Of a DNA stretch of 41,389 nt, positions 368 to 28,568 are shown piece by piece; position 1 is the stretch's first letter; each line of letters starts with the position of its first letter. Both the position numbers and the translations under genes were made by a program. The stretch is taken from contig SUWL01000017.1 in the NCBI GenBank assembly GCA_015061495.1, positions 1 through 41,389 of the forward strand, written 5' to 3'. The stretch is from Lentisphaerota bacterium. GTDB lineage: Bacteria; Verrucomicrobiota; Lentisphaeria; Victivallales; Victivallaceae. The notes beneath the pieces are model-generated. The model was given only the letters and a program-made list of their open reading frames with translations. It did not search any database and had not been told where the DNA came from.

Positions 368-1693
368 TTATCTTTCCGCCTTGCAGAATGGCAGATGTGA
401 CAGCGACCTTAAAAACATCATCAGCAGGGCACGGCTTTGAATGAAGCATGGCATGGTTAAAAGTATTCCCAATGGCATGCAGAATACAGAACTTAATGCT
501 GCTCCCCGGACTCCTGAACAGGGAATCAGCCAAAGATTACCCAGAAAATTCAAAACACAACCGGTGATAACAGTGAGTATATAATGGGAAATTTTTTTGC
601 GGTAAATGGCAATATTGTGGTATATGCAAAGCAATATGAGTGTGGGCAGAGAAAATACGTAAATCTGTAAAATTCCGGCAGATGGAGCAAATTTCTCTCC
701 AAACAGCCAACGGGTTACCGGTTCGGCGGCAAAAGCCGCCGCCGCCGCCGTTATGAGCATCAGGTAAAACAGCGAAAAAGTAAGTTTCTGCAAATAACGA
801 TCCCCGTTTGACGGAGATTTTTCATAGCCGCGAATTATTGCCGGAAACAACGTGGTCAGGATAATTGTGCCGAAAACCAGAAAAGAATCGGAAATTTTTA
901 CCGCCAAACTGTAAAAACCTACCGCTTCCGCACCGGAAAAATACTCCAGCATCATAATATCGGTACGGGAATAGATCACTGAAACCAGACCGCCGCAACT
1001 CAATAGAATAAAAGGTTTCAATACCGGAAGTATGGTTTTGAAAGAAATTTTCCACTCCCGGAGCTTCCCGCCACTGAAAATATATGCCGCAAGTAAAAAT
1101 AAATTAGTGGATATATGCAAAAATGCTTCGATCCAGGCGTAAAACCCCAATGAAAAATCAAATTGCAGGGCAAGTAAACGCAACAGGGCATACAGCACAA
1201 AAGCCAGTAAAAAACAAATCCCATTCTTTTTTACCTGGAGCGTCGCTTGAAAATATGGATGGATAACTTGAAAAATATAACTGCTGTAAGCCAGAGATAT
1301 TATGAGACACAAATATTTCTGACTGCTGCTTAAAACGGAAAAGTAAAGAAAAACTGTTTCCACAGAAAAGAACAATGTAAACAATATCCCATGCAGTAAA
1401 GCAATATTGCCGAGTATCTCTCCGGTGCGCCGGGGTGACTTTATGATTTCCTGCGATATCAACGGATCTCCGCTGCCGGATATTATCATGAAAAACAGAG
1501 TCGAAAAACTGATCGCATAATTCAGCATCCCGAATTTTTCCGGTCCCAGGTGGCGGGTTACCAGAATGCCGACCGTCAACGTATTGACTATCCAGAAGAT
1601 CCGGCTGGCAGCAAGCCAGAGAATCCCTTTCCCGTAAGAGGTTCTCAACTTTTGCAAAACTATTGTTTTCAGCTGCAATAAATTTATCGTCAC
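368..1693 (-). CDS. Wzx-type polysaccharide flippase
   Basis: This is a polytopic inner-membrane protein of about 441 residues with roughly 12-14 hydrophobic segments. It resembles MATE/MOP-fold polysaccharide transporters (PF01943/PF13440), which move lipid-linked oligosaccharide repeat units across the membrane. The N-terminal stretch ILWLAASRIFWIVNTLTVG followed by a short loop with HLGPEKFG is typical of the family. I chose a GTG start at 1693 because GGAG lies 8 bases upstream. A TTG at 1726 would add 11 residues but has no ribosome binding site. It is the last gene of the operon that begins at 8078, next to two glycosyltransferases, which fits export of the glycan they build. Its base composition is AT-rich like its two upstream neighbours. 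The substrate cannot be read from sequence. Confidence 0.85.
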   Translation of the reverse strand: MTINLLQLKTIVLQKLRTSYGKGILWLAASRIFWIVNTLTVGILVTRHLGPEKFGMLNYAISFSTLFFMIISGSGDPLISQEIIKSPRRTGEILGNIALLHGILFTLFFSVETVFLYFSVLSSSQKYLCLIISLAYSSYIFQVIHPYFQATLQVKKNGICFLLAFVLYALLRLLALQFDFSLGFYAWIEAFLHISTNLFLLAAYIFSGGKLREWKISFKTILPVLKPFILLSCGGLVSVIYSRTDIMMLEYFSGAEAVGFYSLAVKISDSFLVFGTIILTTLFPAIIRGYEKSPSNGDRYLQKLTFSLFYLMLITAAAAAFAAEPVTRWLFGEKFAPSAGILQIYVFSLPTLILLCIYHNIAIYRKKISHYILTVITGCVLNFLGNLWLIPCSGVRGAALSSVFCMPLGILLTMPCFIQSRALLMMFLRSLSHLPFCKAER

Positions 1694-1743
1694 CAAATTT
1701 TCTCCGGTTGTTTTTTGTGCTGTCAAGGGTCAGAATATATCAG

Positions 1744-2688
1744 TTATTCATCGAAATTTATCCGTTCTTCTTCGATGACCAGTGGTTTATTTTTGACCTG
1801 GGTGTAGATAGCGCCGATATATTCGCCTAAAACCCCGATGAATATAAGCTGGATGGCGGAGAAGAAAAATAGACCGATCACCAGCGGAGCCATACCGACT
1901 TGGAAGCTGTTCCAGTTACAGAGCTTATAGATAAAATACCCCAGAGCGGTAAGCAAACTTAAAAAGGCGATGAAAAATCCGGAAAAGACCGCCAGTCTCA
2001 ACGGCAGTTTGGTATGATTGACGAAGCCGGTCATTGCCATATCATAAAGGGTGAAAAAGTTGTTTTTAGTTTCACCATGTTTTCTTTTCGGCTGGACAAA
2101 TGGCAATTCAGCTCTTTTGAAGCCGATTTCGGAAACGATTCCGCGGAAGTAAGGATAAGGATCTTTGTATTTTTTCAAAGCATCCATAAAACAGCGGTCA
2201 TAAAGTCCGAAGCCGGTGAAACCGCTGATGAGTTTTTCTTCCGGAGCCATCTTTTTCAGGAGGGAGTAGTAACAGCGGCGGAAAAACTCCATAAGAAAAC
2301 CGCATTCAGTTTTTTGTCTGACGGCAATTACGACTTTGTTTCCCTGCTCCCACTGCCTGATCATGTCTGCGATCAATTCCGGCGGATCCTGCAAATCGGA
2401 ACAAAGGGTTATTACCGCATCGGCATCGGCTTGGATAAAGACATTCATCGGCGAGCGGATATGACCGAAATTATTGGAGTTGAAAATTGCCCTTACCCGT
2501 TTGTCTTTTGCAGCAAGTTCCCGGATTATTTCTCTGGTGCCATCGGTGGAGCAGTTGTCTCCCAGAGTCAAATTCCAATCATATTCCGGAAAATTGGTCA
2601 TAACACTTTTGATTCGCTCATAGAGTTCCCGGATATTATCTTTTTCATTGAAACATCCGGATACTATGCTGATAGATTTTCGTGACAT
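1744..2688 (-). CDS. GtrB/DPM1-like membrane glycosyltransferase (GT2)
   Basis: This 314-residue protein has an N-terminal GT-A catalytic domain and two C-terminal membrane helices (about residues 228-255 and 265-295). The motif DLQDPP at 98-103 is the hallmark of polyprenyl-phosphate glycosyltransferases such as GtrB, ArnC and dolichol-phosphate mannose synthase. The likely reaction is transfer of a sugar from a nucleotide donor to undecaprenyl phosphate on the cytoplasmic face. Such a carrier sugar would feed a GT-C transferase; two GT-C-like genes occur elsewhere in the window (10065-13712 and 35185-36552), but a link is inference. The ATG start has a GGAGG six bases upstream. It sits between the radical SAM gene and the flippase in the same operon. 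The sugar donor is unknown. Confidence 0.88.
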   Translation of the reverse strand: MSRKSISIVSGCFNEKDNIRELYERIKSVMTNFPEYDWNLTLGDNCSTDGTREIIRELAAKDKRVRAIFNSNNFGHIRSPMNVFIQADADAVITLCSDLQDPPELIADMIRQWEQGNKVVIAVRQKTECGFLMEFFRRCYYSLLKKMAPEEKLISGFTGFGLYDRCFMDALKKYKDPYPYFRGIVSEIGFKRAELPFVQPKRKHGETKNNFFTLYDMAMTGFVNHTKLPLRLAVFSGFFIAFLSLLTALGYFIYKLCNWNSFQVGMAPLVIGLFFFSAIQLIFIGVLGEYIGAIYTQVKNKPLVIEEERINFDE

Positions 2689-2723: not shown

Positions 2724-3908
2724 TTATCTGTATTCCTGGTATTCAACGGGTTCTTTGGTTTGGACCGCCGGAGTGATTTGCGGATCATCCAGCTTCCGTC
2801 CCGGACAAAAGCCGCAGGTGCGGATGAAATCACGCCGGCGTATAAGAGCAAAAAGATCCTGTTTGCCAACGTTTTCCGACAGCAGATCCAAATAATCTTC
2901 CGGGAATTTCGGAACAGCTCTTAATTGATCCGCATTGGCGGCAAATGGACAGCGGTAAAACTTGCCATTGGAAAGAGTGTAACTGTTTCTGACACAACAA
3001 CAATCGAAAACAGCTTGATTTTGATCGTCATCTCGTTTGAAATTTTTGATCACGGCACAATTTGTCCATCCGCCAACAGGGACACGGCTGAATTTTATTC
3101 CGTTATTTATCAATATTTCACACATCCGGTCAATGTTACGGGAGAGTTTTCCGTAATCAGTGATTATAAAAAAACTTTTTTCCCGGTCAAGCTTTTTAAT
3201 ATCTTCCTCTTTGGGACAAATTGTACCATTCGTGTAGAACATTATACGGTTGATATTTTTAAATAACGAAATTTTTTGAGCAATCTCCTGCCATTGCCGG
3301 TTCATAAAGGGTTCGCCGCCGATAATTCTGATTTCATTGATCTCGTCTGCCAGGGAACAGAGTTTTTCAACTGAATCGAAAATAGTTGCCAGTGAATAAT
3401 CTTCCGGCTTACGGTAGTATTGCATCAGATTTGAGCAATCTTTACACTTTAAAGAACAGCGTTCTGTAATGACCAGATCGACACTGCGGATAAATAATTT
3501 TTCCGGAGCTGTATAACTGTCCTGCGAGCAGATGCAGGTGGATATTACATATTCTACAAATGACTCCGGCTTGGAATATCCATGCCGGAAAATATCATAA
3601 TGCCGCAGTAATTCTGCCGCCGGGAAATAATATTTGCAACCGGCGTTTTTCAACTGGACAACAATATCCTGTATGTCGATTACTGCAATAATGAATATGG
3701 CATCTGAATATTTTCTGATGACCTCCGGAGCATATTCCACCGGTATTCCGAGCAGTTCTCCTGTTTTTCCTGAATTGTTGTCACAGAAGCATTTAACTTT
3801 AATGCCGCTATCCTGGCAGGCATGAAAAACTGCTTCTCCTGCAACTCCGGCTCCAAATATTATTACCGGAATATTTGCAGATTTCAACGATTGTATATCC
3901 ACCAGCAT
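2724..3908 (-). CDS. Radical SAM enzyme with N-terminal Rossmann-like domain
   Basis: The protein has 394 residues. Residues 1-105 begin with a beta strand and the glycine motif IIFGAGVAGEA, followed by a C-terminal FPAAELL; this resembles the nucleotide-binding half of PglD-type or sugar-tailoring proteins. Residues 140-330 are a radical SAM domain with the CxxxCxxC cluster site at C151, C155 and C158. It is followed by GGEPFMN, the usual SAM-binding GGEP motif. The C-terminal part is cysteine-rich (a CCC triplet, YRCPF, and CGFCPG near the end), consistent with a SPASM/twitch auxiliary iron-sulfur cluster. AAGGA precedes the ATG. It lies 9 bases after a GT2 gene and before a GtrB-like gene, so the likely substrate is a sugar, lipid-linked glycan or small peptide used in the same polymer. 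The reaction is unknown. Confidence 0.82.
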   Translation of the reverse strand: MLVDIQSLKSANIPVIIFGAGVAGEAVFHACQDSGIKVKCFCDNNSGKTGELLGIPVEYAPEVIRKYSDAIFIIAVIDIQDIVVQLKNAGCKYYFPAAELLRHYDIFRHGYSKPESFVEYVISTCICSQDSYTAPEKLFIRSVDLVITERCSLKCKDCSNLMQYYRKPEDYSLATIFDSVEKLCSLADEINEIRIIGGEPFMNRQWQEIAQKISLFKNINRIMFYTNGTICPKEEDIKKLDREKSFFIITDYGKLSRNIDRMCEILINNGIKFSRVPVGGWTNCAVIKNFKRDDDQNQAVFDCCCVRNSYTLSNGKFYRCPFAANADQLRAVPKFPEDYLDLLSENVGKQDLFALIRRRDFIRTCGFCPGRKLDDPQITPAVQTKEPVEYQEYR

Positions 3909-3917
3909 GATTTGTCC

Positions 3918-4946
3918 TTATTTACCAACTTTTCTCATGCAGATTGAGAAAAGCATTTTTTTCAATTTCAAACGCAGTAACAGGGGAATCAATAAACTTT
4001 CTCCTTTCCGCCAACGATAATCAGATAGAAGCCCGACCGTGTTCCGGTCTCCGGTATAGGTATTGATCAATCCGGTCAATTCTGCCGCAGAATTCTTTTT
4101 ATCTCTGACCAGTGCAGCTGCCACCAGCAGATTTTTGACAATGAAATATGCTTCCGCTCTTTGAATCAGAGCATTTATTTTATCATTTTCCCAATGGTAT
4201 TTATTCAGGGATCTTTTCAATACATCTGTCACTTTACGATGTCCGAAAGGCTGAAGAAATAATTTCCCTCCGGTACTGTTTTGACCGGGATTGACCTGAT
4301 AATTGTAAAGATGTTTCCGGATATATTTGATGGAGCTTATCTCTGACACATAATTGCAGTTGAAAACAGTATCTTCCCAGGTTTGCAAAGAGGTGTCAAA
4401 TTTTATATTTTGTTTTTTTATGATGCTTGTTTTATATAATTTTCCCCATATATTGGTGAAAAAAGATGCTCCCCGCGGAGTATCAAGATAATTTGCGATC
4501 ACAACGGGAAGTTCATCCGCTTTATAGAGAGTGTCTTTTTCTCCCATAAAAACATTTTGTCTGCGATTTTCTTCTCCGGCAATCAGGTTGAAATCGGCAA
4601 TTACCCAGTCAGCACCGGAATTTTCCGCCTCTTGCAGCATGATTTTCAACATTTCCGGTTCGATGGTATCATCGGCATCAATAAAACAAATATATTCTCC
4701 GTCAGCCAATGCTATCCCGGCATTTCTGGCTCCTGCCGGACCACAGTTGACGATACTGTGCAATTTTACCGGAAAAGGTGCTGATGCTGAAAAAGCAGTT
4801 ATTTTTGCAACTGTATCGTCGGTTGAGCCGTCATTGATGACAATCAGTTCCAAATCAACATCTTTCTGCTTTGAAACGGCTGTCAGACAATCGTTTATGG
4901 TTTCAGCAGCATTGTATGCCGGAATTATTACTGATATTTTAGACAT
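3918..4946 (-). CDS. GT2-family glycosyltransferase
   Basis: This is a 342-residue soluble or peripheral glycosyltransferase with the GT-A fold of family GT2. The N-terminus ISVIIPAYNAAETI, the INDGSTDDT strand at 37-45 and the metal-binding DADD at 90-93 are diagnostic. TWEDTVFN, further on, probably supplies the catalytic acidic residues. It is expected to add a sugar to the growing lipid-linked repeat unit in the cytoplasm. The 58-base gap to the phosphatase gene upstream is the longest inside this operon. It holds a perfect TTATGCC-G-GGCATAA palindrome (4981-4995), and no clear Shine-Dalgarno precedes this ATG. The gene is distinctly AT-rich compared with the three genes upstream, suggesting that the distal half of the operon was acquired separately. 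Acceptor and donor are unknown. Confidence 0.9.
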   Translation of the reverse strand: MSKISVIIPAYNAAETINDCLTAVSKQKDVDLELIVINDGSTDDTVAKITAFSASAPFPVKLHSIVNCGPAGARNAGIALADGEYICFIDADDTIEPEMLKIMLQEAENSGADWVIADFNLIAGEENRRQNVFMGEKDTLYKADELPVVIANYLDTPRGASFFTNIWGKLYKTSIIKKQNIKFDTSLQTWEDTVFNCNYVSEISSIKYIRKHLYNYQVNPGQNSTGGKLFLQPFGHRKVTDVLKRSLNKYHWENDKINALIQRAEAYFIVKNLLVAAALVRDKKNSAAELTGLINTYTGDRNTVGLLSDYRWRKGESLLIPLLLRLKLKKMLFSICMRKVGK

Positions 4947-5004: not shown

Positions 5005-5472
5005 TCAGATTTCTCCGTGGAGAGTGAGTTTTTCCAGAAGTTCCCAGATGCAGCCGTCACCGCCGGTACGCTCCAACTGCATTTTGGCGGCTTTTTTCAC
5101 TTCGCTGATGGCATTGGCGGGGCAGGCGGAATATTTCACCAGTTTAATGATCGCCACATCGTACTTGCCGTCACCTACATAACAAATCTCTTCAGCGGTA
5201 AATCCGGTTTTTTCCAGAATTTCCGCCAGTGCTTCCGGTTTATTTTTGCACCCTTTATAGAAAAAATCCGGTTGGAAACGGTTGCGGAAATACTCTGTTA
5301 TCGGGGTCGCTTCTCCGGTGATCAAACCGATTTTCAACCCTCGGCGCTTGAATTCAAAAACCGCATCAATATCCTTGAAATCAATGGTTTTTAACTCATT
5401 GCCATTGGAATCCACCGTTATTTTTCCGTTGGTCAAAACTCCATCGATATCCAGCAACACCGCTTTGATCAT
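5005..5472 (-). CDS. KdsC-like HAD phosphatase
   Basis: This 155-residue protein belongs to the capless HAD phosphatases typified by KdsC (Kdo-8-phosphate phosphatase) and the C-terminal domain of N-acylneuraminate cytidylyltransferases. Motif I is LLDIDGVLT with the nucleophile D8 and acid D10. Motif II is LITGE, and the third motif region has a conserved lysine followed by VGDGKYD (GDG rather than the more frequent GDD). It should remove phosphate from a 2-keto-3-deoxy sugar acid phosphate made by the NeuB-family enzyme of the same operon. An upstream in-frame start at 5526 is rejected. The ATG at 5472 overlaps the stop of the ThDP enzyme as ATGA (translational coupling) and gives a normal family length. 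Without a true NeuA or KdsA nearby the substrate stays open. Confidence 0.85.
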   Translation of the reverse strand: MIKAVLLDIDGVLTNGKITVDSNGNELKTIDFKDIDAVFEFKRRGLKIGLITGEATPITEYFRNRFQPDFFYKGCKNKPEALAEILEKTGFTAEEICYVGDGKYDVAIIKLVKYSACPANAISEVKKAAKMQLERTGGDGCIWELLEKLTLHGEI

Positions 5473-7238
5473 GCTTTTGCCATCCTCATATTTTCCGCAA
5501 CTTCCGCTTCCGGTAAATAGGGCCACATATCTTCCAGCGGGTGTGAAATCATACTGCCGTCAGGACGTTTTTCCGCTTGAACTTTAGGCATTGTCCGGTG
5601 CAATGCAGTGACTTTTACCTTGCAAATCACCGGATCATTTCCGGCAAGTGTTTCGGCGATTGCCGCATCAAGATTTTCATTGCGGTCAACTTGCAACGTC
5701 CTTATGCCGTAAGCCTCCGCCTGTTTGCACACATCCGGCAACGTCAAACCGCTATTCCGGTCAGAACCGACCAGAAAACCGTTGAACATATTATTCTGGG
5801 TGTTGACAATACTGCCGTATCCATCATTGTCCCAGATGAACATTTTTACCGGCAGAGCCAATCTTTTCACCGTTTCCAACTCCTGAATATTCATCTGGAA
5901 TGCTCCGTCTCCGTTGATCAGCACCGTTCTTTTGCCCTCATTGGCAATCGCCGCACCGATCGCGTATGGCAACCCGAATCCCATAGAACCCAATCCGGCG
6001 GCATTTTTGACTTTCTGCCCTTTTTTGATTTTCATGCCCTGATAAGTCACTTCACCGGCGGCTCCGGAACTTTCCGGGACGATCACATCTTCAGCGGTCA
6101 GAGCGGCAAAAAGTTTTTCCGTAAAGCAGTAAAGATCAACGGCATCATTATTGATTTTTTCATCATCATATACCGGATATTTACTGCGAAGTTCCCGGCA
6201 GAATTCCACCCATTCATTGTGTGGCAATACCGAAAAATCATTTTTTTGCAGCTTTTTGATAAAGCAAGCTGCATCGGCAACCACCGGAAGGGTGATTCCT
6301 TTGATCTTGCGGATCTCTGCCTCATCAATATCCACCATGATTTTTTTGGCATTGCGGGCGAAATCCCCGCTGTTGAAGGCTGTTAAACTCGGGTCAAGCC
6401 TGCTGCCGGCAATCAGCAGACAGTCGCAATTCTGCACGGCAAAATTTGCATACCGGCTGCCCATGATCCCGGGAAAACCAAAATAAAGCGGATGATTGAA
6501 ATCCAATAAATCGGCAGTTTTCCACGTCAACAGCATCGGAATATCATGCTTTTCCGCAAATTTAACATATTCTCCGGCACATCCGGCTAATTTGGCACCA
6601 TTGCCAATAAGCATAAGCGGACGGCGTGCAGAACTTAACAAATCAATGATTTCTGTTACAGGAATATCGTAATTCACGGCGGCAGGAATATCGTATCCGC
6701 ACAAATTTTTTTCATCAATCTGCGCGCCCTGCACATCCAGAGGGATGTCCAGCCATACCGGCCCCATTCTGCCGTCGGTAGCCAAATGCCACGCTTTTTC
6801 CAGATGATAACGGATCATTTCCGGCTCCAGCACCGTTACGGCATATTTCGTTATCCCGCTGACCATGGAAACGATATCCACTTCTTGAGAGCCCATCTGC
6901 CGCACACCGGTGCCGGTTTTCAAATCACTGCGTTTCGCCTGCCCGGAAAGCATAAACATCGGCGTGGAATCAATATACCCTGCCGCCACTGCAGTTATCG
7001 CATTGGTGCTTCCCGGCCCGCTGGTAACCAATCCGACCCCCGGAAAATTGCAGTGCTGACCGTAAGATTCCGCCGCAATAGCCAACGCCTGTTCATGCAA
7101 AAATGAGTAGTGACGCAGACGTGAACAACGCCCCAATGCATCATTCAGATGCATTGATCCGCCGCCGGGAAGCATAAACACATCCTGCACTCCCCTGTCT
7201 GCAAGAAATTCCATTATATAATCGGCCGCCCGCATCAT
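5469..7238 (-). CDS. Acetolactate-synthase-like ThDP-dependent enzyme
   Basis: The 589-residue protein has the three-domain layout of the acetolactate synthase/pyruvate oxidase family. The Pyr domain contains the catalytic glutamate context LHEQALAIAAESYG and the SGPGSTNAI motif. A central Rossmann-like domain follows. The PP domain carries the ThDP/Mg signature GDG (about residue 440) through NDGYGS (about residue 469). It lies between a NeuB-family gene and a KdsC-like gene with tight spacing and no IlvN regulatory subunit, so branched-chain amino acid synthesis is unlikely. In established sugar pathways a related enzyme (YerE) adds a two-carbon unit from pyruvate to a keto-sugar; a similar carboligation or a decarboxylation here is inference. 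An ATG ATG pair opens the gene, with AGAGGA about 12 bases upstream inside the end of the NeuB-like gene. Confidence 0.83.
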   Translation of the reverse strand: MMRAADYIMEFLADRGVQDVFMLPGGGSMHLNDALGRCSRLRHYSFLHEQALAIAAESYGQHCNFPGVGLVTSGPGSTNAITAVAAGYIDSTPMFMLSGQAKRSDLKTGTGVRQMGSQEVDIVSMVSGITKYAVTVLEPEMIRYHLEKAWHLATDGRMGPVWLDIPLDVQGAQIDEKNLCGYDIPAAVNYDIPVTEIIDLLSSARRPLMLIGNGAKLAGCAGEYVKFAEKHDIPMLLTWKTADLLDFNHPLYFGFPGIMGSRYANFAVQNCDCLLIAGSRLDPSLTAFNSGDFARNAKKIMVDIDEAEIRKIKGITLPVVADAACFIKKLQKNDFSVLPHNEWVEFCRELRSKYPVYDDEKINNDAVDLYCFTEKLFAALTAEDVIVPESSGAAGEVTYQGMKIKKGQKVKNAAGLGSMGFGLPYAIGAAIANEGKRTVLINGDGAFQMNIQELETVKRLALPVKMFIWDNDGYGSIVNTQNNMFNGFLVGSDRNSGLTLPDVCKQAEAYGIRTLQVDRNENLDAAIAETLAGNDPVICKVKVTALHRTMPKVQAEKRPDGSMISHPLEDMWPYLPEAEVAENMRMAKA

Positions 7239-7247
7239 GATCTGAAT

Positions 7248-8078
7248 TTATCCTCTCATTTTTTTCCGGACAGCCAATTCCTTCTCCGAAAGAATCTTCT
7301 TTCCGCTGCCCAATGCCGATTCCATATCCCGGATCTGTTTGACATATTCGATAAGTTTCAGCGGCTCGACCGACGCTTTCTGATCCGAACCGTACATCGC
7401 ACGGTCAAGTGTTATATGCCGTTCCACCGAACACGCCCCTAACGCAACCGCTCCAAGCGTAGCAATATTGTCGATTTCATGACTGGAATAACCGACCGGA
7501 CAATTATAACGCTTCCTCAATTCCGGAATTATCAGCAGATTCGCCTCTTCCGGCGGCATCGGATAAACCGAAACACAGTGCATCAATTCAAACGGACAAT
7601 CCGCTCTGCGAAAAATTTCCACCGCAGCATCAATCTCTTCCCAGGTACTCATCCCGGTCGCAATAAAAGTGTATTTGCGCTCTTCTGCAATCGCTTCAAG
7701 CAACGGGATATCGGTCAGCACCGGTGATGCTACTTTATTGTACTTCAAATCAAAACGCCGCATGAATATTTGCGAATCCACATCCCAGCATGACGCGAAC
7801 CAGACAATATTCCGCTCCTTGCAGTAGGCGTCAATCTCACGATATTCGGCCTCCCCGAATTCCAAGCCCTCTTTCTGCTCTCTCTGGGTGGTCCCCCACG
7901 GACTTTCTCGCGGGCTGTCAAGAAACTCCTGCGTGTAAACTTTATCAATGGTACGTTTTTGAAATTTTACCGAATCGCATCCGGCAAGTACCGCCGCATC
8001 GATCAAACGTTTGGCTATTTCCGTATCACCATTATGATTGATGCCGATTTCTGCGGAAATGAAAATTTTGTCAGCCAT
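7248..8078 (-). CDS. NeuB-family sugar acid synthase, short form
   Basis: This 276-residue protein is the catalytic TIM barrel of the N-acetylneuraminate (nonulosonic acid) synthase family, which condenses phosphoenolpyruvate with an aldose to give a 2-keto-3-deoxy sugar acid. Visible family motifs are AEIGINHNGD, SVKFQKR, NKVASP, IATGMST, HCVSVYPMP and ERHITLDR, so the metal and phosphoenolpyruvate ligands appear intact. The protein ends right after the barrel. The C-terminal antifreeze-like SAF domain of typical NeuB/SpsE (about 340-350 residues) is missing. The start at 8078 is chosen because AGGTGA lies 5 bases upstream; an in-frame ATG at 8093 would place that site inside the gene. It is the first gene of a seven-gene operon with a well-formed promoter at 8123-8151. 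Confidence 0.85.
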   Translation of the reverse strand: MADKIFISAEIGINHNGDTEIAKRLIDAAVLAGCDSVKFQKRTIDKVYTQEFLDSPRESPWGTTQREQKEGLEFGEAEYREIDAYCKERNIVWFASCWDVDSQIFMRRFDLKYNKVASPVLTDIPLLEAIAEERKYTFIATGMSTWEEIDAAVEIFRRADCPFELMHCVSVYPMPPEEANLLIIPELRKRYNCPVGYSSHEIDNIATLGAVALGACSVERHITLDRAMYGSDQKASVEPLKLIEYVKQIRDMESALGSGKKILSEKELAVRKKMRG

Positions 8079-9495: not shown

Positions 9496-10068
9496 ATGAA
9501 CTTTGCAGAATTGGTATCCTCCCGGCGGACGATCCGCCGTTTTGAACAGCGCCAGCTGCCCGATGAGTTGATCGTGCAGCTGATCGATGCGGCAAGATAT
9601 GCTTCATGTGCTTCCAACAAACAACCCTTGCGCTACGTCGTCATCCGGGAGCGCGAAGCGGTACGGCAGGTCTTTGAAACCACCCGCTGGGCGGGAATGG
9701 TCGCCCCGAAACGCACCCCGGAGTGGGGCGTGGATGCCCCGTTGTGTTTCATTGCTGTGACCATCCCCGCAGAAATGCCGCTCCACCTGCCGGCAGATGC
9801 CGGAGCCGCAGTCCAGAGTATGGAACTTGCCGCCTGGGAAAAAGGTGTCGGATGCTGCTGGTTCGCCAGTTTTGACCCGCAGAAAACCGCGCAGATCATC
9901 GGCTTGCCTCCGGAACGCAAAGTGCTGTATCTGGTGGCGGCAGGTTTCCCCGCCGAAACTCCCGTTACCGAAGATGCCGTCGATGGCAATGTCGCATATT
10001 ATCTTGACAGTCAGGATGTTCTGCACGTTCCGAAACTGCCGGTAAATGAAATAACTTCCTGGATGTGA
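9496..10068 (+). CDS. Nitroreductase family protein
   Basis: This 190-residue protein belongs to the FMN-dependent nitroreductase fold, which transfers hydride from NAD(P)H to nitro-aromatics, quinones, flavins or related acceptors. The FMN-contact motif SSRRTIRRF (8-16) and the ASNKQP segment at 39-44 are present. The C-terminal half has the usual glycine-rich region (GVGCCWFASFD) and LYLVAAGFPAETP. The protein is cytoplasmic, with no signal peptide. AAGGAG precedes the ATG, and a consensus-like promoter lies just upstream. The gene ends in ATGTGA, and the next gene starts at an overlapping GTG, so the two may be translated together although no functional link is evident. The physiological substrate cannot be inferred. 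Confidence 0.88.
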   Translation: MNFAELVSSRRTIRRFEQRQLPDELIVQLIDAARYASCASNKQPLRYVVIREREAVRQVFETTRWAGMVAPKRTPEWGVDAPLCFIAVTIPAEMPLHLPADAGAAVQSMELAAWEKGVGCCWFASFDPQKTAQIIGLPPERKVLYLVAAGFPAETPVTEDAVDGNVAYYLDSQDVLHVPKLPVNEITSWM

Positions 10069-13000
10069 AACCGATGGATATTTTTCGCCGTACCGTCCGT
10101 TATATCGCGGCGATACTCTTTTTGCTGTTGAGTTTTGCCGGAATGCCGCTGGCTTTTTTGCGCTTCACCGGTGAAAATCTGCCGCTTTACGGGGTGGTCA
10201 ACTTCACCACTCTTCCGGCACTGGCAGTTTTTTCGCTGGGGATCATTGCTGCCTTCCCGGAAAATTTGTACGGGATATGGCACAATTCCCGTTTGCGTAT
10301 TCTGATCTGCGGTGCCGGACTGCTGTTTTTATGCCTTGCCGGGCATCTGCTCTGCGGCAGGATCACCGTGGAAAACTTCCTCGGTACGCTCTTTTACCTT
10401 GCCGCTCCTCTGGCTGTGGCAATGCTGGCCGATGAGTTCCGCAAACTGCTGATCCCCTTTGCGGCACTGGGTACGCTGATACTGGTATGCAGCGGGTTGA
10501 CTTCATACGGATTTACCGGGCTTACCGGCAACTGGAACTGGACCAGCGGGATATTCATCGCCCTGCTGCCGGGGGTTTTTCTGCTGTTTTGCCCCCAAAA
10601 AACGCCCTGGCTGACTACTGGAGCTGCGGCACTGTTTTTTGTGCTGTTTCACCTGATCCATCCGCAATGCTTCCCCCGGTCCGCCCTGCTGGCATTTGCC
10701 GGGGCGGCAATATTGCTGCTGATCCGGCGCAAACTGCCGGAAAAACGCTTTGTTCTCCTGCTTGCCGTGGCTCTTCCGGTCGTCCTGCTGCTGTTTTTAA
10801 GCGTCCTGCCTCTGGTTTCCCTGCCGGACACCCGGCTGCAGATCTGGCGGGGTGCCGCCGGGATCATCGGCAACAATTTTTTTACCGGAGCCGGAGCCGG
10901 ACGCTTGCCGGAAGTTATTCATCTGCATCTTTTTGATGCGGCATTTTTCACGGAATTTCCCGCTCCGAATATCGACCATGCGCACAATGATTTTCTCAAT
11001 CTTTTCGCAGAAAACGGCATTGCCGGGGCAATTTTTTACGTTACGGCACTCATTACGCTTTTCCGGCGGCGGGAAAAGTCTGCTTCCGGCAAAATGGCGC
11101 AGTGGATGGCGGCGGTCATGGTGATCTGTGCCTTCTTTGACCAGCATCATCTTGCGGTATCCGGTGCATCGGTGACGGCACTTGCCGCCGGATTGCTGAT
11201 CTCCCCCCGGCGCAAAGAAACTTTTGCATTCAAACCGTTATGGCAATTTATCAACCTGACTGCCGGGGCGGTATTGTTGGCGTTCTCTTTGGGCATGATG
11301 ATCACGCAGTACCGGGCGACGACCTTTTTGCGCCGGGGCGATCTGGCGGCTCTGGAGCAGAACATCCCGGAAGCTCTGGAAAATTACGACCGCTCCATGG
11401 AGATAAAATTTCTCCCCGCTGCCGCCTATCAGGCAGCGGAAATGCAGCTGCTCTTTTACCAGCGCGGCGAAAGTGCATTACGCTTGCTGGAAAGAATGGA
11501 ATTTACGTTGAAACTCAATAATTTCCGGCATCAGCGCCGGCTGACCGGCTGGGCGCATTTCACCTTGAAAAATTACCCGCAGGCAGTGGAGTATTTCCAA
11601 CTGGAAAAAGCCCGTTCCCCCTACAGCGTGATCAACGCCAATTTTTACCGCATCGCTCTGCGGCAGAACCGTGCTGATGCGGCGGATATCCAAACTGCCG
11701 ACCGCCGTTTTCTGGAGTTGTGCCGTTTGCGGCAGATCTCTCCCGGGCAGCTTGACCGGTTCACGGTCAAAAGTGATGATATCGGATTTTCCCCGGAAGT
11801 CCGGCAAACTTATTTCAAGGAAAAACCGCTGATCGACCCGGTATTCGGCGGGATCTTCCGGAATATTGCCGGAGCATTTTTGCTGATGACGGCGGTTTAC
11901 GGGCTGGGAAAACTGCTCTTGAAACCATTTAAAAAAGCGGATCTGACTGCCGAAATCGCCTGCGGCATGGTGATTTCCGGGATGCTGGCTCTGGTGATCC
12001 CGCCGTCGCTTCTCCGGTATGGATTTTTCCTGCCGTCGCTTGCCGGGGCATACTTCGCCATTGCTGAAGTGCGGAAAAACTGGCGCACGGTACTGCTTTT
12101 TTTCCTGATAATGGCACCGTTTTTCGCCGGAATGCTGCTGCCGCCATCGGCGTGGGATGAACAGGTTTACCAGATCTCTTTGCTGAAACGCTATCTTGCC
12201 GCGGACAGCTGTCTGCCGGTGCCGGACAATCCCTATTCGGCATATCCTTCGCTCGGACAGCTCTTTCTCATTGGCGGCATCTTTCCCGGGGCATGGAATA
12301 CTCCACTGCTGGTCATCTGGGTGCTGACGGCGGTCATGGCGGCGAAGTTCCGGCACTTTGCCGAACCTTACGGCAAAGTACTGTCGTGGATCGCGCTGGC
12401 GGCAGTGATGCTGTCGCCGCTTTTCTGGAATATTCTCCGGGCATTTTATGTGGAAAGCATCGTGGCATTTTTCGGTTTTGCCGGAGTCATTTTGCTTTTT
12501 GCCAACTGGGAAAAGGTAAAGTGGCAGTACTTTTTTGCCGGAGCAATGGCGGGCGCGGCGGCGGCGGTCAAACTGCCGGGTATCAGCGTGTCGCTAATGC
12601 TTTTTATCCTGCTTGTTTCCGACCGGGACAAGCGGCGTTATGCGATGTGGTTCATCACCGGAAGCATCGTTGCGGCACTGCCATTTTTCCTGCGGGTGTG
12701 GATCTGCTGCGGCAATCCGGTGTACCCCTATTTCACCGCAATTTTCGGCGGCAGTGCCGCAACTGCCGCAATGGAAGCCTTTTTCCGCACATTAGGCGGC
12801 AACTACGGTGGCGATCCCTTTGCCGGGATCGTTTGCAATCTGATCGATCCGGTGATTTTTGATGTGGATTTTGACGGGATCAATCCGGGATTCCAGCAGT
12901 TTGCATTTGCGGTGATACTGGGAGTGGGGTTGTGGCGGAATAAGCTGCGTGCCACCCGGTTCAGCCGGGGAGTTCTGGCGCTGGCGGCGATGTGGATATT

Positions 13001-13712
13001 CTGGAACCTGACTGCCCAGCAGACCCGTTTCCTCTATCCGCTGCTGTGGGCGGGAGCGTTTCTGGCGGTTATGGCGGCAGGGACATTTTCCGCCAAGGGG
13101 CGTCAACTTGCCGCGGTGGCACTGCTGACGGCAGCGGCAATAAATGCCGGTACGAAATATCCGGAATTGAAACACTACTTCCTCGCGCCGGCAACTGTGT
13201 ACGAAGCGCGTAAAAGTCCGGCGGATTTCGCCGCCTGGGTCAGTGAAGAACCCGGCTATGCAAAGGTCGTTGCGGAATTGGAAAAACTTGCCGGTTCCCG
13301 AATCGCTTCCCTCTGGGAGAGAAGAACCTTGTATCTGCCGGACAATGTGACCGTCATCATGCCGGGATTTCAGGAAAAATTCACCGTTCTCCCGGCGAAT
13401 GCCGCTGAATTTTACCGTCAACTGCAGGATTTTGACTGTCTGCTGGTGCGTCCGCCGCTGAAAGATGTGGACAAGGCGATCGAATTTGCCCCCGGCGCAG
13501 TGGAGATCAATGCGATGATCTTTGAATTGCTGAAAACCGGCAAGTTGACCATTCACCGTACCGACAGCAGCGGTCAGATCATGATTTTGCGGATCGTTCC
13601 GGAAACTTTGCCGATTCCGGTGCGGGCAAGCAATCCATCCAAGTCAGCAAGTGTGGACAAGCCGGATGCTTCCGCCCGCAGTGCAGCGGCAAAGCCCCTG
13701 CCTTTAAGGTAG
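10065..13712 (+). CDS. O-antigen ligase/polymerase - TPR - GT-C glycosyltransferase fusion
   Basis: This very large membrane protein (1215 residues) has three parts. Residues 1-410 hold about a dozen hydrophobic segments and the Wzy_C/WaaL signature HAHNDFLNLFAENGIAG (from H305), typical of O-antigen ligases and polymerases acting on undecaprenyl-linked glycan in the periplasm. Residues about 420-550 are helical and TPR-like (PEALENYDRS, YPQAVEYFQLEKA). Residues about 590-1170 form a second multi-spanning block with AWDEQVY (D698, E699) in its first periplasmic loop, as in GT-C glycosyltransferases that use lipid-phosphate sugars. The GTG start overlaps the upstream TGA (GTGA); an ATG at 10074 is an alternative, and neither has a good ribosome binding site. 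The last 46 codons are antisense to dus and look like a non-conserved read-through tail. A role in surface glycan assembly is inferred. Confidence 0.8.
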   Translation: MKPMDIFRRTVRYIAAILFLLLSFAGMPLAFLRFTGENLPLYGVVNFTTLPALAVFSLGIIAAFPENLYGIWHNSRLRILICGAGLLFLCLAGHLLCGRITVENFLGTLFYLAAPLAVAMLADEFRKLLIPFAALGTLILVCSGLTSYGFTGLTGNWNWTSGIFIALLPGVFLLFCPQKTPWLTTGAAALFFVLFHLIHPQCFPRSALLAFAGAAILLLIRRKLPEKRFVLLLAVALPVVLLLFLSVLPLVSLPDTRLQIWRGAAGIIGNNFFTGAGAGRLPEVIHLHLFDAAFFTEFPAPNIDHAHNDFLNLFAENGIAGAIFYVTALITLFRRREKSASGKMAQWMAAVMVICAFFDQHHLAVSGASVTALAAGLLISPRRKETFAFKPLWQFINLTAGAVLLAFSLGMMITQYRATTFLRRGDLAALEQNIPEALENYDRSMEIKFLPAAAYQAAEMQLLFYQRGESALRLLERMEFTLKLNNFRHQRRLTGWAHFTLKNYPQAVEYFQLEKARSPYSVINANFYRIALRQNRADAADIQTADRRFLELCRLRQISPGQLDRFTVKSDDIGFSPEVRQTYFKEKPLIDPVFGGIFRNIAGAFLLMTAVYGLGKLLLKPFKKADLTAEIACGMVISGMLALVIPPSLLRYGFFLPSLAGAYFAIAEVRKNWRTVLLFFLIMAPFFAGMLLPPSAWDEQVYQISLLKRYLAADSCLPVPDNPYSAYPSLGQLFLIGGIFPGAWNTPLLVIWVLTAVMAAKFRHFAEPYGKVLSWIALAAVMLSPLFWNILRAFYVESIVAFFGFAGVILLFANWEKVKWQYFFAGAMAGAAAAVKLPGISVSLMLFILLVSDRDKRRYAMWFITGSIVAALPFFLRVWICCGNPVYPYFTAIFGGSAATAAMEAFFRTLGGNYGGDPFAGIVCNLIDPVIFDVDFDGINPGFQQFAFAVILGVGLWRNKLRATRFSRGVLALAAMWIFWNLTAQQTRFLYPLLWAGAFLAVMAAGTFSAKGRQLAAVALLTAAAINAGTKYPELKHYFLAPATVYEARKSPADFAAWVSEEPGYAKVVAELEKLAGSRIASLWERRTLYLPDNVTVIMPGFQEKFTVLPANAAEFYRQLQDFDCLLVRPPLKDVDKAIEFAPGAVEINAMIFELLKTGKLTIHRTDSSGQIMILRIVPETLPIPVRASNPSKSASVDKPDASARSAAAKPLPLR

Positions 13713-24060: not shown

Positions 24061-27000
24061 ATGAAAAGATTGTTTCTCCCGGTCTTGGTACTGCCGCTCT
24101 GGTTATCCGCGGCGGCAGTGGAGTTCGGCAATGATCTGGTTTCCATGAAAATCGAACCGGTCGGCGGCAGGATATCTTCATTGAAACTGCATAACGGTCA
24201 GGAACTTACTGCGGTTGATGGTCTGCTTGGGGACAATTTTACCCACCATGACAGTGCGAAGTTCTTTCTCACCAGGAGGAACTATGATCTGGAACGGGGC
24301 AAACATCAGATCGTACTGCGCGCCCACCACACCGGCGGGGCGGTGGATTTCCTGAAACTTGCCAAAACGTTCACCCTGAAACCGGGGGAGACCGTTATTG
24401 ATGTCAAGTATGACTTTCACAATCTTCCGGCGGCAATGGCGGCAAATGAGTACGCCTTTGCCAGCCAGAATTTCGTCAACTCTGCTCCGGGCAATGTCCG
24501 GCTCTTTTTTCCCGGGATCAACGGCATAAATATGCTTCCTGCCCACGGTTCGGGGGTCGACTTCTCCTACTTCCGTCAACCCTCCCGGGCGTGGATGGGA
24601 TTTGCCGGTGAAAACGGCGGAGGTCTGGCATTTACCATGGATTACCGGCTGCTCTCCCAATTCTACTGCTGGCTGGGAAAAAAGGAGACCACCCAGGAGT
24701 TTTATTTCGACAAAATCAGGATCAATGCCGGAGATACTGCAGTAACCCATCTGGAACTGATCCTGTTTCATACGCTGAAACGCATCTCCGGAGCCGGCGG
24801 CGGACTGGTCGGGGAATTATCCGCTGTGCGCAACGGCCGCAGCGATCAGCAGCAGCGCATTTCCCTGAAACTTTTCAGCGGCAGACCCCAGACGGTCAAA
24901 GTGGTTTTCACCTCCCGCAAACTCCGGGACGGCAAGCCGGTCAGGATCTATGAAAAAACGTTGCACTACTCCAGCGGTTCCACGGTCAAAGAGATCGCAT
25001 TTCACCATCACTTCAAACAGTTTCCGGCACTGTTTGATATCGAAGCGCGGGCGTATTCACATCAGGGAAAACTGCTGGCGATATTCAATATGCCCCTGGG
25101 TTTGGGTACCGGAGAGATCGCCTACCGCATGCAGGAACAGCTCAAACTGGAAAAACACGCCAAAGCCCAGATCGACCTGACCAAATTTGACAATTCGCGC
25201 GATTCCAAACATATCCAATGGGCGAAACCGCTTGCCGGAGGTCGCATCCGGATGCTGGGCATCACTCCTTACCCGGCGTACCGCGAAATGGCGGAACTTG
25301 CCAAACGGCTGGATATCGATCTGCACTCCACGCTTTTCATTGCCCAGGGGCGGGCAGCCAATGCGACGGGAGATCACTTCGGCATTCTCACGGAAACGGA
25401 CATTGCCAATAATATTGACAATCTGCTGCAAAAGGATTACGATGTGATCTTCCTTGCCGGGGTGCATCTGGACAAATTGAGTGCTGTCCAGCGGCGGGAG
25501 ATCATCCGCAAAGTCGCCGGAGGATGCGGTCTGGTGCTGATCGGATGTTCCGGAAAGAATCAGGAAATTTTCAACATTTCTCCGCTGATCCCGCAGGTAA
25601 AGGGGGATTACCCCCGGCATCCGGCGCGGAAATATGGTGAACACTTTATCACGTCAGTTTTTCCCTGGTACCTTTTTCCGGTGACGACCTGTCTGCCGGT
25701 CAAACTCAACGGCAAAATGGTCGCCAAAACCGGCAGTGCGCCCTTTATTGCCGTCCGGGAACACGGCAAAGGCAGAGTAATTGCCATTGCCAATATCACC
25801 AGCGGCGGGCAGGGGCGGATGACCGCCGGTCTGACCCCGGAACTGCCGTATCCGCAGGAAGGAGCTGATTTTACTGAATTCATCGAACTTTATCAGCTGC
25901 TCTACGGTAAAATGATCGCTTATGCCGCCAAACGGGACAACGGTTATCAGTTCCGGAGTGCGAAAATCAGTTCCGGAGCGGGTAAATTCACGGTAAAAAT
26001 CGATTTCCGCAATCTGCCGGTATCAGGGGATAAAAAATACACCCTGACCCTCTTTTCCTGCAACCGGGAAGGAGAAGAGCTTACCCGCAAAGACTTCTCC
26101 TTTGTTCCGGCGGAGAGTGCATCATTTGCGCTCCCTGCCAAAAGGTGGAACGGTCAGCAGCTTATCGGCATGATCCTGCGTGATCCGGATGGCAAAGTGG
26201 TGGATTTCGGGGCTGACAGTTCCCAATATCTGCCTATGGCACGCTCCCATAAACTTACTGCGGATAAAAAACATTACACCGAGGGGGAAACGGCGGTATT
26301 CACGCTGATTTCAGCCGTGGAAACTGCCGGAGCCGAGGTACGCTGGCAGTTGTGCGATGCCTTTGACCGGGTGGTGAAAAGCGGGAAAGTTCCTGCCGCT
26401 GCTGAAATAAAGATCCCGGTGGAGATAACTTCGACGCTGCTTTCGCGCTGGTATGTTTTCCGGGCGGAAATGTATATCAATGGCGAACTTGCCGGCAGAC
26501 GGACGCTCAAATTCACCGCGCTTCCCGCCCGGGAAAAGCTGAAGTGGGACGATTATGAAGCCGGTATCTGGATCACACCCTACAGTTATGAAGCTTCCCG
26601 TCCGGCATTTCACCGTTTTTACGCTGATATCCTGCGGGAGATGGGGATGGATACCATCATGGGCAACAGCCGCATGGCAGATACGGATTTCGCTTTGAAC
26701 AACAACTTCCATCCGACGCTGTACCGCAGCGGCGGCACCCGTCCGGCGCAGATTTCCGCTGAATTCCGGAAAAGCGGCAACAAGATGCTGCTGATCCGCA
26801 AACCGTGTTTGAGTTCGCCGGAATTCCGGAATAAAATGCAGGACGAATTCCGCAAATTCGGAGCCGAACACCGCCATTTGGGAGCCAGATTCTGCTGGTT
26901 CGGCGATGAGTTGTCACTGACCGGATATTGGAGTTCGGCGATCGACTTTTGTTTCTCTCCGAGTTGTCTGGCGGGATTCCGCAGCTTCCTGCAGCGCAAA

Positions 27001-28563: not shown

Positions 28564-28568
28564 AATTT

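What the first reader, a model, noticed from the sequence alone, without database searches (positions are those of the whole stretch)
5005..8078. NeuB-like, ThDP carboligase-like and KdsC-like genes as one unit: a possible undescribed sugar-acid pathway
Seen: three contiguous genes, with a 4-bp overlap between the second and third, encode a NeuB-family synthase, an acetolactate-synthase-like ThDP enzyme without regulatory subunit, and a KdsC-like phosphatase, followed by glycosyltransferases and a flippase. Known: NeuB-type enzymes make 2-keto-3-deoxy sugar acids, KdsC-type enzymes dephosphorylate them, and the ThDP enzyme YerE attaches a two-carbon unit to a keto-sugar. Inference: the ThDP enzyme may prepare an unusual aldose for condensation or add an acetyl-type branch, giving a new nonulosonate-like residue. 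No CMP-sugar synthetase is nearby, so activation must be encoded elsewhere or be different.
Basis: partly seen in the sequence, partly recalled or inferred. Interest (0 to 1): 0.7.

Follow-up and report, generated by a model that had tools for sequence, protein, structure and literature searches.

The report
Sialic-type synthase feeding a sugar-branching enzyme
Three neighbouring bacterial genes look like a small assembly line that first makes a long sugar acid with a relative of the sialic-acid synthase and then hands it to a vitamin-B1 enzyme that grafts most of it onto another sugar, which would give a large, branched and possibly new surface sugar.

Summary
The three genes are real and recur. 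NeuB-like (276 aa, no SAF domain), YerE-like ThDP enzyme and KdsC-like phosphatase stand in this order in 7 of 100 related genomes (own included), and together, in another order, in Bacillota. The ThDP enzyme is not IlvB (that is on another contig) but groups with YerE-like carboligases, which add keto-acid-derived chains to CDP-4-keto-sugars. CDP-glucose dehydratase occurs in 43 of 47 related genomes with such an enzyme, 9 of 53 without. In 80 named NeuB loci, 14 of 16 with ThDP lack a CMP-synthetase; 49 of 64 without ThDP have one. On the ThDP tree most NeuB-linked enzymes group together although they use two distant NeuB types; in a sister group aldolases sit near ThDP instead. Best reading: NeuB and phosphatase make a 3-deoxy-2-keto sugar acid that the ThDP enzyme decarboxylates and adds to a CDP-4-keto-deoxyhexose, giving a branched higher sugar. 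YerE/ErwE chemistry is known; a NeuB-type donor synthase did not turn up in my searches of open-access papers. All reactions are inferred. Verdict: new variant of a known kind.

The parts
7248..8078 (-). NeuB-family synthase, short form without SAF domain (PEP + aldose phosphate -> 3-deoxy-2-keto acid phosphate, inferred)
   Evidence: PF03102 228.5 bits; below the NnaB and PseI equivalog cut-offs (243 vs 400; 182 vs 340); conserved in 7 genomes
5469..7238 (-). YerE-like ThDP carboligase (decarboxylative transfer of the keto acid to a CDP-4-keto-sugar, inferred)
   Evidence: TPP N/M/C domains; best solved relative 8rph 361 bits, then 5ahk 262 bits; below the IlvB cut-off 357 < 538; trees
5005..5472 (-). 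KdsC-like HAD phosphatase (removes the terminal phosphate of the 3-deoxy-2-keto acid, inferred)
   Evidence: best NCBIfam KDN-9-phosphate phosphatase 108 bits (cut-off 180), KdsC subfamily 96 bits (cut-off 107); best solved relative 3e81; 4-bp overlap with the ThDP gene
3918..4946 (-). GT2 glycosyltransferase, same operon-like run
   Evidence: PF00535 113 bits; gap 58 bp
2724..3908 (-). radical SAM protein, possible sugar tailoring
   Evidence: PF04055 39 bits; NeuD-like N-terminal match 23 bits; other radical SAM genes in relatives' clusters (L049; L043)
1744..2688 (-). PgfS/ArnC-like GT2, may move the finished sugar to a polyprenyl phosphate (inferred)
   Evidence: NF047588 176 bits, PRK10714 113 bits, both below cut-off; in 35 of 46 YerE-like ThDP loci, window included; the others 53-77% identical
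368..1726 (-). Wzx-type flippase
   Evidence: PF01943 57 bits

Best explanation
The trio is a branched-sugar module. (1) The short NeuB condenses PEP with an aldose phosphate to a 3-deoxy-2-keto sugar acid phosphate (inferred from family). (2) The KdsC-like phosphatase removes the phosphate (inferred from family). (3) The YerE-like ThDP enzyme decarboxylates this keto acid and adds the remaining polyhydroxyacyl chain to C-4 of a CDP-4-keto-deoxyhexose made by RfbF-RfbG-RfbH, which this genome carries on contig C15 (gene presence and linkage shown, chemistry inferred). (4) The CDP-linked branched higher sugar (at least 12 carbons if the NeuB acceptor has 4 or more) is tailored, passed to a polyprenyl carrier by the PgfS/ArnC-like transferase and built into a surface glycan (inferred). 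No CMP-synthetase is needed, because activation is already on the acceptor.
For: Linkage: trio in 7 of 7 genomes with NeuB at least 72% identical, 0 of these 7 loci with a CMP-synthetase; the 8 of 8 next-closest NeuBs (46-62%) have a CMP-synthetase centred within 1.5 kb and no ThDP gene in the locus. In 80 named NeuB loci, 14 of 16 with a YerE-like ThDP lack a CMP-synthetase, 49 of 64 without ThDP have one (Fisher p 4e-6). YerE-like ThDP goes with CDP-glucose dehydratase: 43 of 47 genomes vs 9 of 53. RfbF-RfbG-RfbH directly precede NeuB-ThDP-KdsC in 3 of the 7 (G011, G036, G053). ThDP tree: 30 NeuB-linked rows fall together (91/94) although they use two NeuB types about 30% identical. Module swapping: 7 of 10 members of a sister ThDP clade have a keto-acid aldolase within about 2 kb of ThDP (5 HpcH/HpaI, 2 4-hydroxy-2-oxovalerate-aldolase-like); 0 of 17 NeuB-linked loci of relatives and 0 of 16 named NeuB loci with ThDP match either. 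Known chemistry: ErwE prefers 4-hydroxy-2-oxo acids and MMAR_2332 is similar (PMC12247030, section 6 read); the caryophyllose branch is 1,3,4,5-tetrahydroxyhexyl (PMC5706390, passage), the pattern left by a decarboxylated and reduced 3-deoxy-2-ulosonate.
Against: I found no assay of any enzyme of this group. In the window genome RfbFGH lie on another contig. ThDP/CMP exclusivity rests on few independent changes: 3 independent pairs on supported branches, no power. Two of 16 ThDP loci do have a CMP-synthetase (L085 8 kb off, L103), 15 of 64 ThDP-less loci have neither, and 9 of 11 ThDP-positive Bacillota genomes have PF02348 genes of 77 bits or more somewhere, so CMP activation there is not excluded. 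Only 11 of 16 named ThDP loci show any RfbF/G/H, and 7 of 64 ThDP-less ones do too. Nine related genomes have CDP-glucose dehydratase without YerE-like ThDP, four the reverse. NeuB-linked ThDPs N88, N118 and N103 fall outside the group. The aldolase matches to Pfam are weak (20-32 bits), and two ThDP-less named NeuB loci also hold relatives of them (L081, L125). The NeuB acceptor is unknown.
Confidence: 0.72

Rival explanations
1. Two separate sugars in one glycan cluster: NeuB and KdsC make an ordinary ulosonic acid that a CMP-synthetase elsewhere activates, while the ThDP enzyme makes a yersiniose-type sugar from pyruvate. Adjacency is only glycan-cluster clustering.
For: Glycan clusters mix unrelated pathways; 9 of 11 ThDP-positive Bacillota genomes have PF02348 genes of 77 bits or more; close NeuB relatives do have CMP-synthetases.
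Against: ThDP stands between or next to NeuB and KdsC in two phyla and two orders; most NeuB-linked ThDPs form their own group; the window genome has one PF02348 gene, KdsB-like, and a KdsA that can account for it.
Confidence: 0.18
2. One reading: the ThDP enzyme first prepares an unusual aldose (or adds an acetyl branch), which NeuB then condenses with PEP to a new branched nonulosonate.
For: Gene adjacency alone fits either direction; KDN-9-phosphatase-like HAD.
Against: A nonulosonate would still need CMP activation, not seen in the locus; the RfbFGH link points to a CDP-bound acceptor, which a NeuB would not be expected to use; the aldolases found near ThDP in sister clusters are, by family, keto-acid enzymes.
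Confidence: 0.05
3. The ThDP enzyme is an acetolactate synthase large subunit with a housekeeping role and the neighbours are incidental.
For: Best NCBIfam names are acetolactate synthases.
Against: 357 bits against a cut-off of 538 for IlvB; a true IlvB is on contig C98 with 659 bits; gap between this subfamily (387 bits or more for full-length hits) and the other matches (262 or less) in 100 genomes; nearest solved relative 8rph.
Confidence: 0.02

Closest known systems
YerE (yersiniose A) and YerE-like ThDP carboligases (JanthE 8rph; PpYerE, which I recall as 5ahk)
   Same: same enzyme family, CDP-4-ketohexose genes nearby in relatives, branch put on a sugar ketone
   Different: YerE uses pyruvate (at most a C3 chain); here NeuB and a phosphatase are built into the cluster
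ErwE (erwiniose) and MMAR_2332 (caryophyllose)
   Same: ThDP enzymes that prefer longer hydroxylated 2-keto acids as donors (PMC12247030); the caryophyllose branch has the expected 1-OH, 2-deoxy, polyol pattern (PMC5706390)
   Different: no NeuB-type donor synthase is named in what I read (the review holds the word NeuB 0 times); the caryophyllose branch ends in CH3, while a phosphatase here points to a donor with a terminal CH2OH (inference)
KDN pathway of Bacteroides (KDN-9-P phosphatase; BT1713 = 3e81 and the organism are recalled)
   Same: NeuB plus KdsC-like HAD; KdsC is closest to this phosphatase
   Different: KDN goes to a CMP-synthetase (recalled); here no CMP-synthetase in the cluster
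Kdo pathway KdsD-KdsA-KdsC (recalled)
   Same: same logic of isomerase, PEP synthase, phosphatase; in Bacillota the phosphatase is fused to a GmhA-type SIS isomerase (L085)
   Different: synthase is NeuB type and the product is, in this model, spent as ThDP donor

Membership tests
YerE-like ThDP carboligase | three TPP-enzyme domains, HEQ glutamate and GDG motif (motif roles recalled) | tested here: met
   HEQ at 48, GDG at 443
YerE-like ThDP carboligase | closer to solved YerE-like enzymes than to acetolactate synthases | tested here: met
   8rph (JanthE) 361, 5ahk (PpYerE by recall; the entry is titled acetolactate synthase II) 262, then 6lpi 239 bits; trees split it from IlvB at 100
YerE-like ThDP carboligase | genes for a CDP-4-keto-deoxyhexose in the genome or cluster | tested here: met
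   RfbF-G-H on C15; CDP-glucose dehydratase in 43 of 47 related genomes; not adjacent in the window itself
YerE-like ThDP carboligase | transfers an acyl unit to a sugar ketone | not testable with these tools
   needs enzyme assay
acetolactate synthase (IlvB) | score above the curated IlvB cut-off | tested here: not met
   357.5 vs 538.35
N-acetylneuraminate / pseudaminate synthase (equivalogs) | score above curated cut-off | tested here: not met
   243.2 vs 399.65; 182.4 vs 340.25
N-acetylneuraminate / pseudaminate synthase (equivalogs) | C-terminal SAF domain | tested here: not met
   276 aa, PF03102 only
NeuB family (PF03102) | NeuB domain with catalytic residues (list recalled) | tested here: met
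   228.5 bits; E10, N14, K38, K41, K115, S198, H200, E219, H221, D232 present and invariant in 7
KDN-9-phosphate phosphatase / KdsC | score above the equivalog or subfamily cut-off | tested here: not met
   108.4 vs 180; 95.6 vs 106.95; 83.7 vs 208
KDN-9-phosphate phosphatase / KdsC | HAD motifs (recalled) | tested here: met
   DIDGV at 8, GDGKYD at 100
nonulosonate (sialic-type) pathway | dedicated CMP-sugar synthetase with the NeuB | tested here: not met
   none found in the window; one PF02348 gene in the genome, KdsB-like, with a KdsA present; genome 89% complete

The most novel reading that the evidence does not exclude
A whole, unrecognised class of branched higher sugars is made by swapping donor-making modules in front of YerE-like carboligases: none (pyruvate), keto-acid aldolases, short NeuB plus KdsC, and a NeuB-SAF-cupin fusion, often with a gene that looks HAD-like by eye. 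In Bacillota, where the phosphatase is fused to a GmhA-type heptose-phosphate isomerase, the NeuB would join PEP to a heptose-7-phosphate, giving a 10-carbon ulosonic acid and, after ThDP transfer, a 15-carbon branched sugar.
Probability: 0.25. Interest if true: 0.85.

Novelty: new variant of a known kind. Interest (0 to 1): 0.7.

Why it matters
If true, it gives sialic-acid-type synthases a second use: making carbon donors for C-C ligation instead of sugars for CMP activation. It predicts branched sugars of about C12-C15 on Lentisphaeria and gut Bacillota, explains annotation puzzles (NeuB without CMP-synthetase; 'acetolactate synthase' in glycan clusters), offers ThDP enzymes for long polyol donors to biocatalysis, and can be tested in vitro with a handful of purified enzymes.

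Tried and rejected
IlvB with a distant IlvN: rejected. A second NeuB in the genome: the other PF03102 hits are DAHP synthases. KdsB on C45 as activator of this NeuB product: less likely, since KdsA is present, but not excluded. Genome-wide absence of CMP-synthetase as proof: inconclusive; 23 of 23 genomes have PF02348 hits, and only G107 and G111 (both ThDP-positive Bacillota) have nothing above 31.5 bits. Paired test on the NeuB tree: without power. Twelve ThDP positions differ consistently between NeuB-linked and NeuB-less enzymes; not interpreted, because the AlphaFold model is weak (mean pLDDT 70.8, under 50 at 404-418 and 474-497). Fold search was not run. Literature (open-access library only): 0 papers held acetolactate synthase + NeuB + KdsC, thiamine + nonulosonic + acetolactate, or three of CDP-glucose / acetolactate synthase / sialic acid synthase / branched-chain sugar; two of branched sugar / ThDP-dependent / NeuB gave 6 papers, by titles only the review is on topic; YerE-like gave 2; caryophyllose 18, YerE + yersiniose 6, erwiniose 4, MMAR_2332/2333/2336 4 (listings); deculosonic-type words 0. 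Passages only were seen of PMC12188165, PMC5706390 and PMC4703794 (two reference-list hits, nothing useful). PMC9306805 and PMC2742863, cited by the review for ErwE and for M. marinum, are not held.
Full report
OBSERVATION. Four more genes follow on the same strand: GT2, radical SAM, PgfS/ArnC-like GT2 and a Wzx flippase. The window is contig C47 of a 2.67-Mb, 123-contig genome, 89% complete. The nearest named NeuB records are Victivallales and Lentisphaeria MAGs.

WHAT THE PROTEINS ARE. NeuB is a bare PF03102 domain without SAF and well under the NnaB and PseI cut-offs; catalytic residues (list recalled) are present. The ThDP enzyme is under the IlvB cut-off (357 vs 538), while the genome's real IlvB is on C98 (659 bits). 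Its nearest solved relatives are 8rph (361 bits), which the JanthE paper names as JanthE (PMC12188165, abstract and passages), and 5ahk (262 bits), which I recall as PpYerE. KdsC is nearest to the KDN-9-phosphate phosphatase model and structure but under its cut-off.

CONSERVATION. In 100 related genomes (own included) the ThDP search gives a clean split: 47 genomes have a YerE-like protein (387 bits or more, except one partial hit of 327 in G027); the other listed matches score 262 bits or less. NeuB at 72-100% identity is in 7 genomes, and in 7 of 7 the order NeuB-ThDP-KdsC holds. In 3 of these 7 loci RfbF-RfbG-RfbH stand directly upstream; they were named by NCBIfam in G036 (CDP-glucose dehydratase 482 bits and RfbH 710 bits, both over cut-off; the cytidylyltransferase 279, under 300). 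In the window genome the dehydratase (450 bits) is on C15 between close relatives of RfbF and RfbH. CDP-glucose dehydratase is in 43 of the 47 YerE-positive genomes and 9 of the other 53; G022, G030, G044 and G082 have ThDP without it.

THE CMP-SYNTHETASE TEST. If NeuB made a normal ulosonate, a CMP-synthetase should travel with it. Among the 15 closest NeuB genes in relatives, the 7 with ThDP have none in the locus; the 8 without ThDP (46-62% identity) all have one centred within 1.5 kb. Among 46 of 47 YerE-like loci (G027 not fetched; several are short contigs), 0 hold one of 40 bits or more. The HMM for the synthetase was built from members of these same loci. On the NeuB tree 3 independent pairs exist, too few for a test. 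Genome-wide the picture is weaker: 9 of 11 ThDP-positive Bacillota genomes have PF02348 genes of 77 bits or more, 2 of 11 have none above 31.5. The window genome has a single one, KdsB-like, and also KdsA.

TWO NeuB TYPES, ONE MAIN ThDP GROUP. Other relatives have a 500-odd-aa protein, NeuB plus SAF plus a cupin resembling D-lyxose isomerase, about 30% identical to the short NeuB. Of 12 genomes with it, 10 have it beside a YerE-like ThDP; in G082 both genes are on short separate contigs, and G013 has no ThDP hit at the threshold. ThDPs linked to either NeuB form one side of a branch: 98 SH-aLRT in the quick tree (70 rows), 91/94 in the careful tree (60 rows; ten rows left out). Exceptions: N88 and N118 (36-37% identical, long branches) and N103 lie outside.

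MODULE SWAPPING. Most NeuB-less ThDPs fall into two clades. In one (15 rows, 13) neither NeuB nor either aldolase type was found; the usual picture is RfbFGH, ThDP, PgfS-like GT and an SDR-like gene, as expected for pyruvate. In the other, 10 rows (100/100), 7 loci carry a keto-acid aldolase within about 2 kb of ThDP: HpcH/HpaI in G009, G028, G034, G041 and G073 (Pfam 20-28 bits in the 4 scanned, one of them under the cut-off of 25; best solved relative of the G034 one is YfaU, 2-keto-3-deoxy sugar aldolase, 23 bits), and an HMGL-type, 4-hydroxy-2-oxovalerate-aldolase-like protein in G040 and G095 (G040: Pfam 32 bits). G034 also has a KdsC-like gene and G040 a HAD gene there. A further pair, G031 and G007, groups with JanthE and has neither. 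None of 17 NeuB-linked loci among relatives, and none of the 16 named NeuB loci with ThDP, has either aldolase; two ThDP-less named loci do (L081 HpcH-like 45%, L125 HMGL-like 28%). So NeuB sits where keto-acid makers sit. This is the strongest single argument for the direction of flow.

CHEMISTRY. The review PMC12247030 (abstract, passages, section 6 and part 1 of the references) says that YerE transfers activated acetaldehyde from pyruvate to CDP-3,6-dideoxy-4-keto-D-glucose, that ErwE does not use pyruvate and prefers longer donors such as 4-hydroxy-2-oxo acids, and that MMAR_2332 of caryophyllose synthesis is similar. PMC5706390 (passages) gives caryophyllose as 3,6-dideoxy-4-C-[D-altro-1,3,4,5-tetrahydroxyhexyl]-D-xylo-hexopyranose. 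That side chain is what a 3-deoxy-2-ulosonate leaves after loss of CO2, addition to the C-4 ketone and reduction of the new ketone (my inference). The cluster described here therefore fits known chemistry with a new way to make the donor. A phosphatase in the cluster suggests a donor with a terminal CH2OH, hence a more polar branch than in caryophyllose.

BACILLOTA. In the 11 named ThDP-positive Bacillota loci the order is NeuB, KdsC with a SIS domain about 0.3 kb behind it, then ThDP. In L085 KdsC and a GmhA-type SIS domain are one 358-aa protein, and RfbF (344 bits) and RfbG (428 bits) are over cut-off. Near relatives on the NeuB tree (L076, L077, L078, L081, L089, L135) have a KdsC-SIS gene too, but a CMP-synthetase and no ThDP; a seventh, L074, has neither on its 3-kb contig. 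An isomerase-synthase-phosphatase set with either CMP activation or ThDP transfer at the end is a natural exchange point. If the SIS domain acts on sedoheptulose-7-phosphate as GmhA does (recalled), the acid has 10 carbons; this is a guess.

STATUS OF STEPS. Shown: gene content, order, recurrence, family placement, co-occurrence. Inferred: every reaction. Open: the NeuB acceptor, the acceptor sugar where RfbH or all of RfbFGH were not found nearby (5 of 16 named ThDP loci show none of the three), tailoring by the radical SAM and methyltransferases, and the final glycan.

Noticed in passing
L180:11807-13140 (G034); L161, L163, L164, L166: HpcH/HpaI-type aldolase (in G034 also a KdsC-like gene) near a YerE-like ThDP gene: a second possible donor-making module, ErwE-like in logic.
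   Followed up: partly
L167:7425-8249 and 10051-10695 (G040); also L165:7194-8015 (G095): 4-hydroxy-2-oxovalerate-aldolase-like protein directly upstream of ThDP, with a HAD phosphatase downstream in G040.
   Followed up: partly
L161:10679-13225; cluster-mates in L166: SDR plus 3-dehydroquinate-synthase-like protein plus HpcH aldolase as a block after ThDP; role unknown.
   Followed up: no
L049:10803-12377 and 11 other related genomes: NeuB-SAF-cupin fusion (cupin resembles D-lyxose isomerase), 10 of 12 next to ThDP; in several loci a 200-aa gene without Pfam match, HAD-like by eye, lies between them.
   Followed up: partly
L085:10836-11912; by reading also L074, L076, L077, L089, L100, L135: KdsC fused to a GmhA-type phosphoheptose isomerase next to NeuB; hints at heptose-based, 10-carbon ulosonic acids, also in clusters with a CMP-synthetase.
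   Followed up: partly
L085:2952-4475 and 9986-10822: One Lachnospiraceae locus carries both NeuB types plus a CMP-synthetase 8 kb away.
   Followed up: partly
L117, L119, L121, L136 (Caulobacter): NeuB of this clade with RfbF and RfbH in 4 of 4 and RfbG in 2 of 4, no CMP-synthetase in the locus; a divergent ThDP enzyme (30-34%) lies 8-9 kb off in L117 and L121, on the YerE side of the tree but on a very long branch.
   Followed up: partly
window 10065-13712: 1215-aa protein, hydrophobic by eye, next to a nitroreductase-like gene; no Pfam match at 1e-10.
   Followed up: no
window 24061-28563 and 28560-30542: 1500-aa and 660-aa proteins in tandem, no Pfam match at 1e-10, downstream of an FAD oxidoreductase and a DUF1559 protein.
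   Followed up: no
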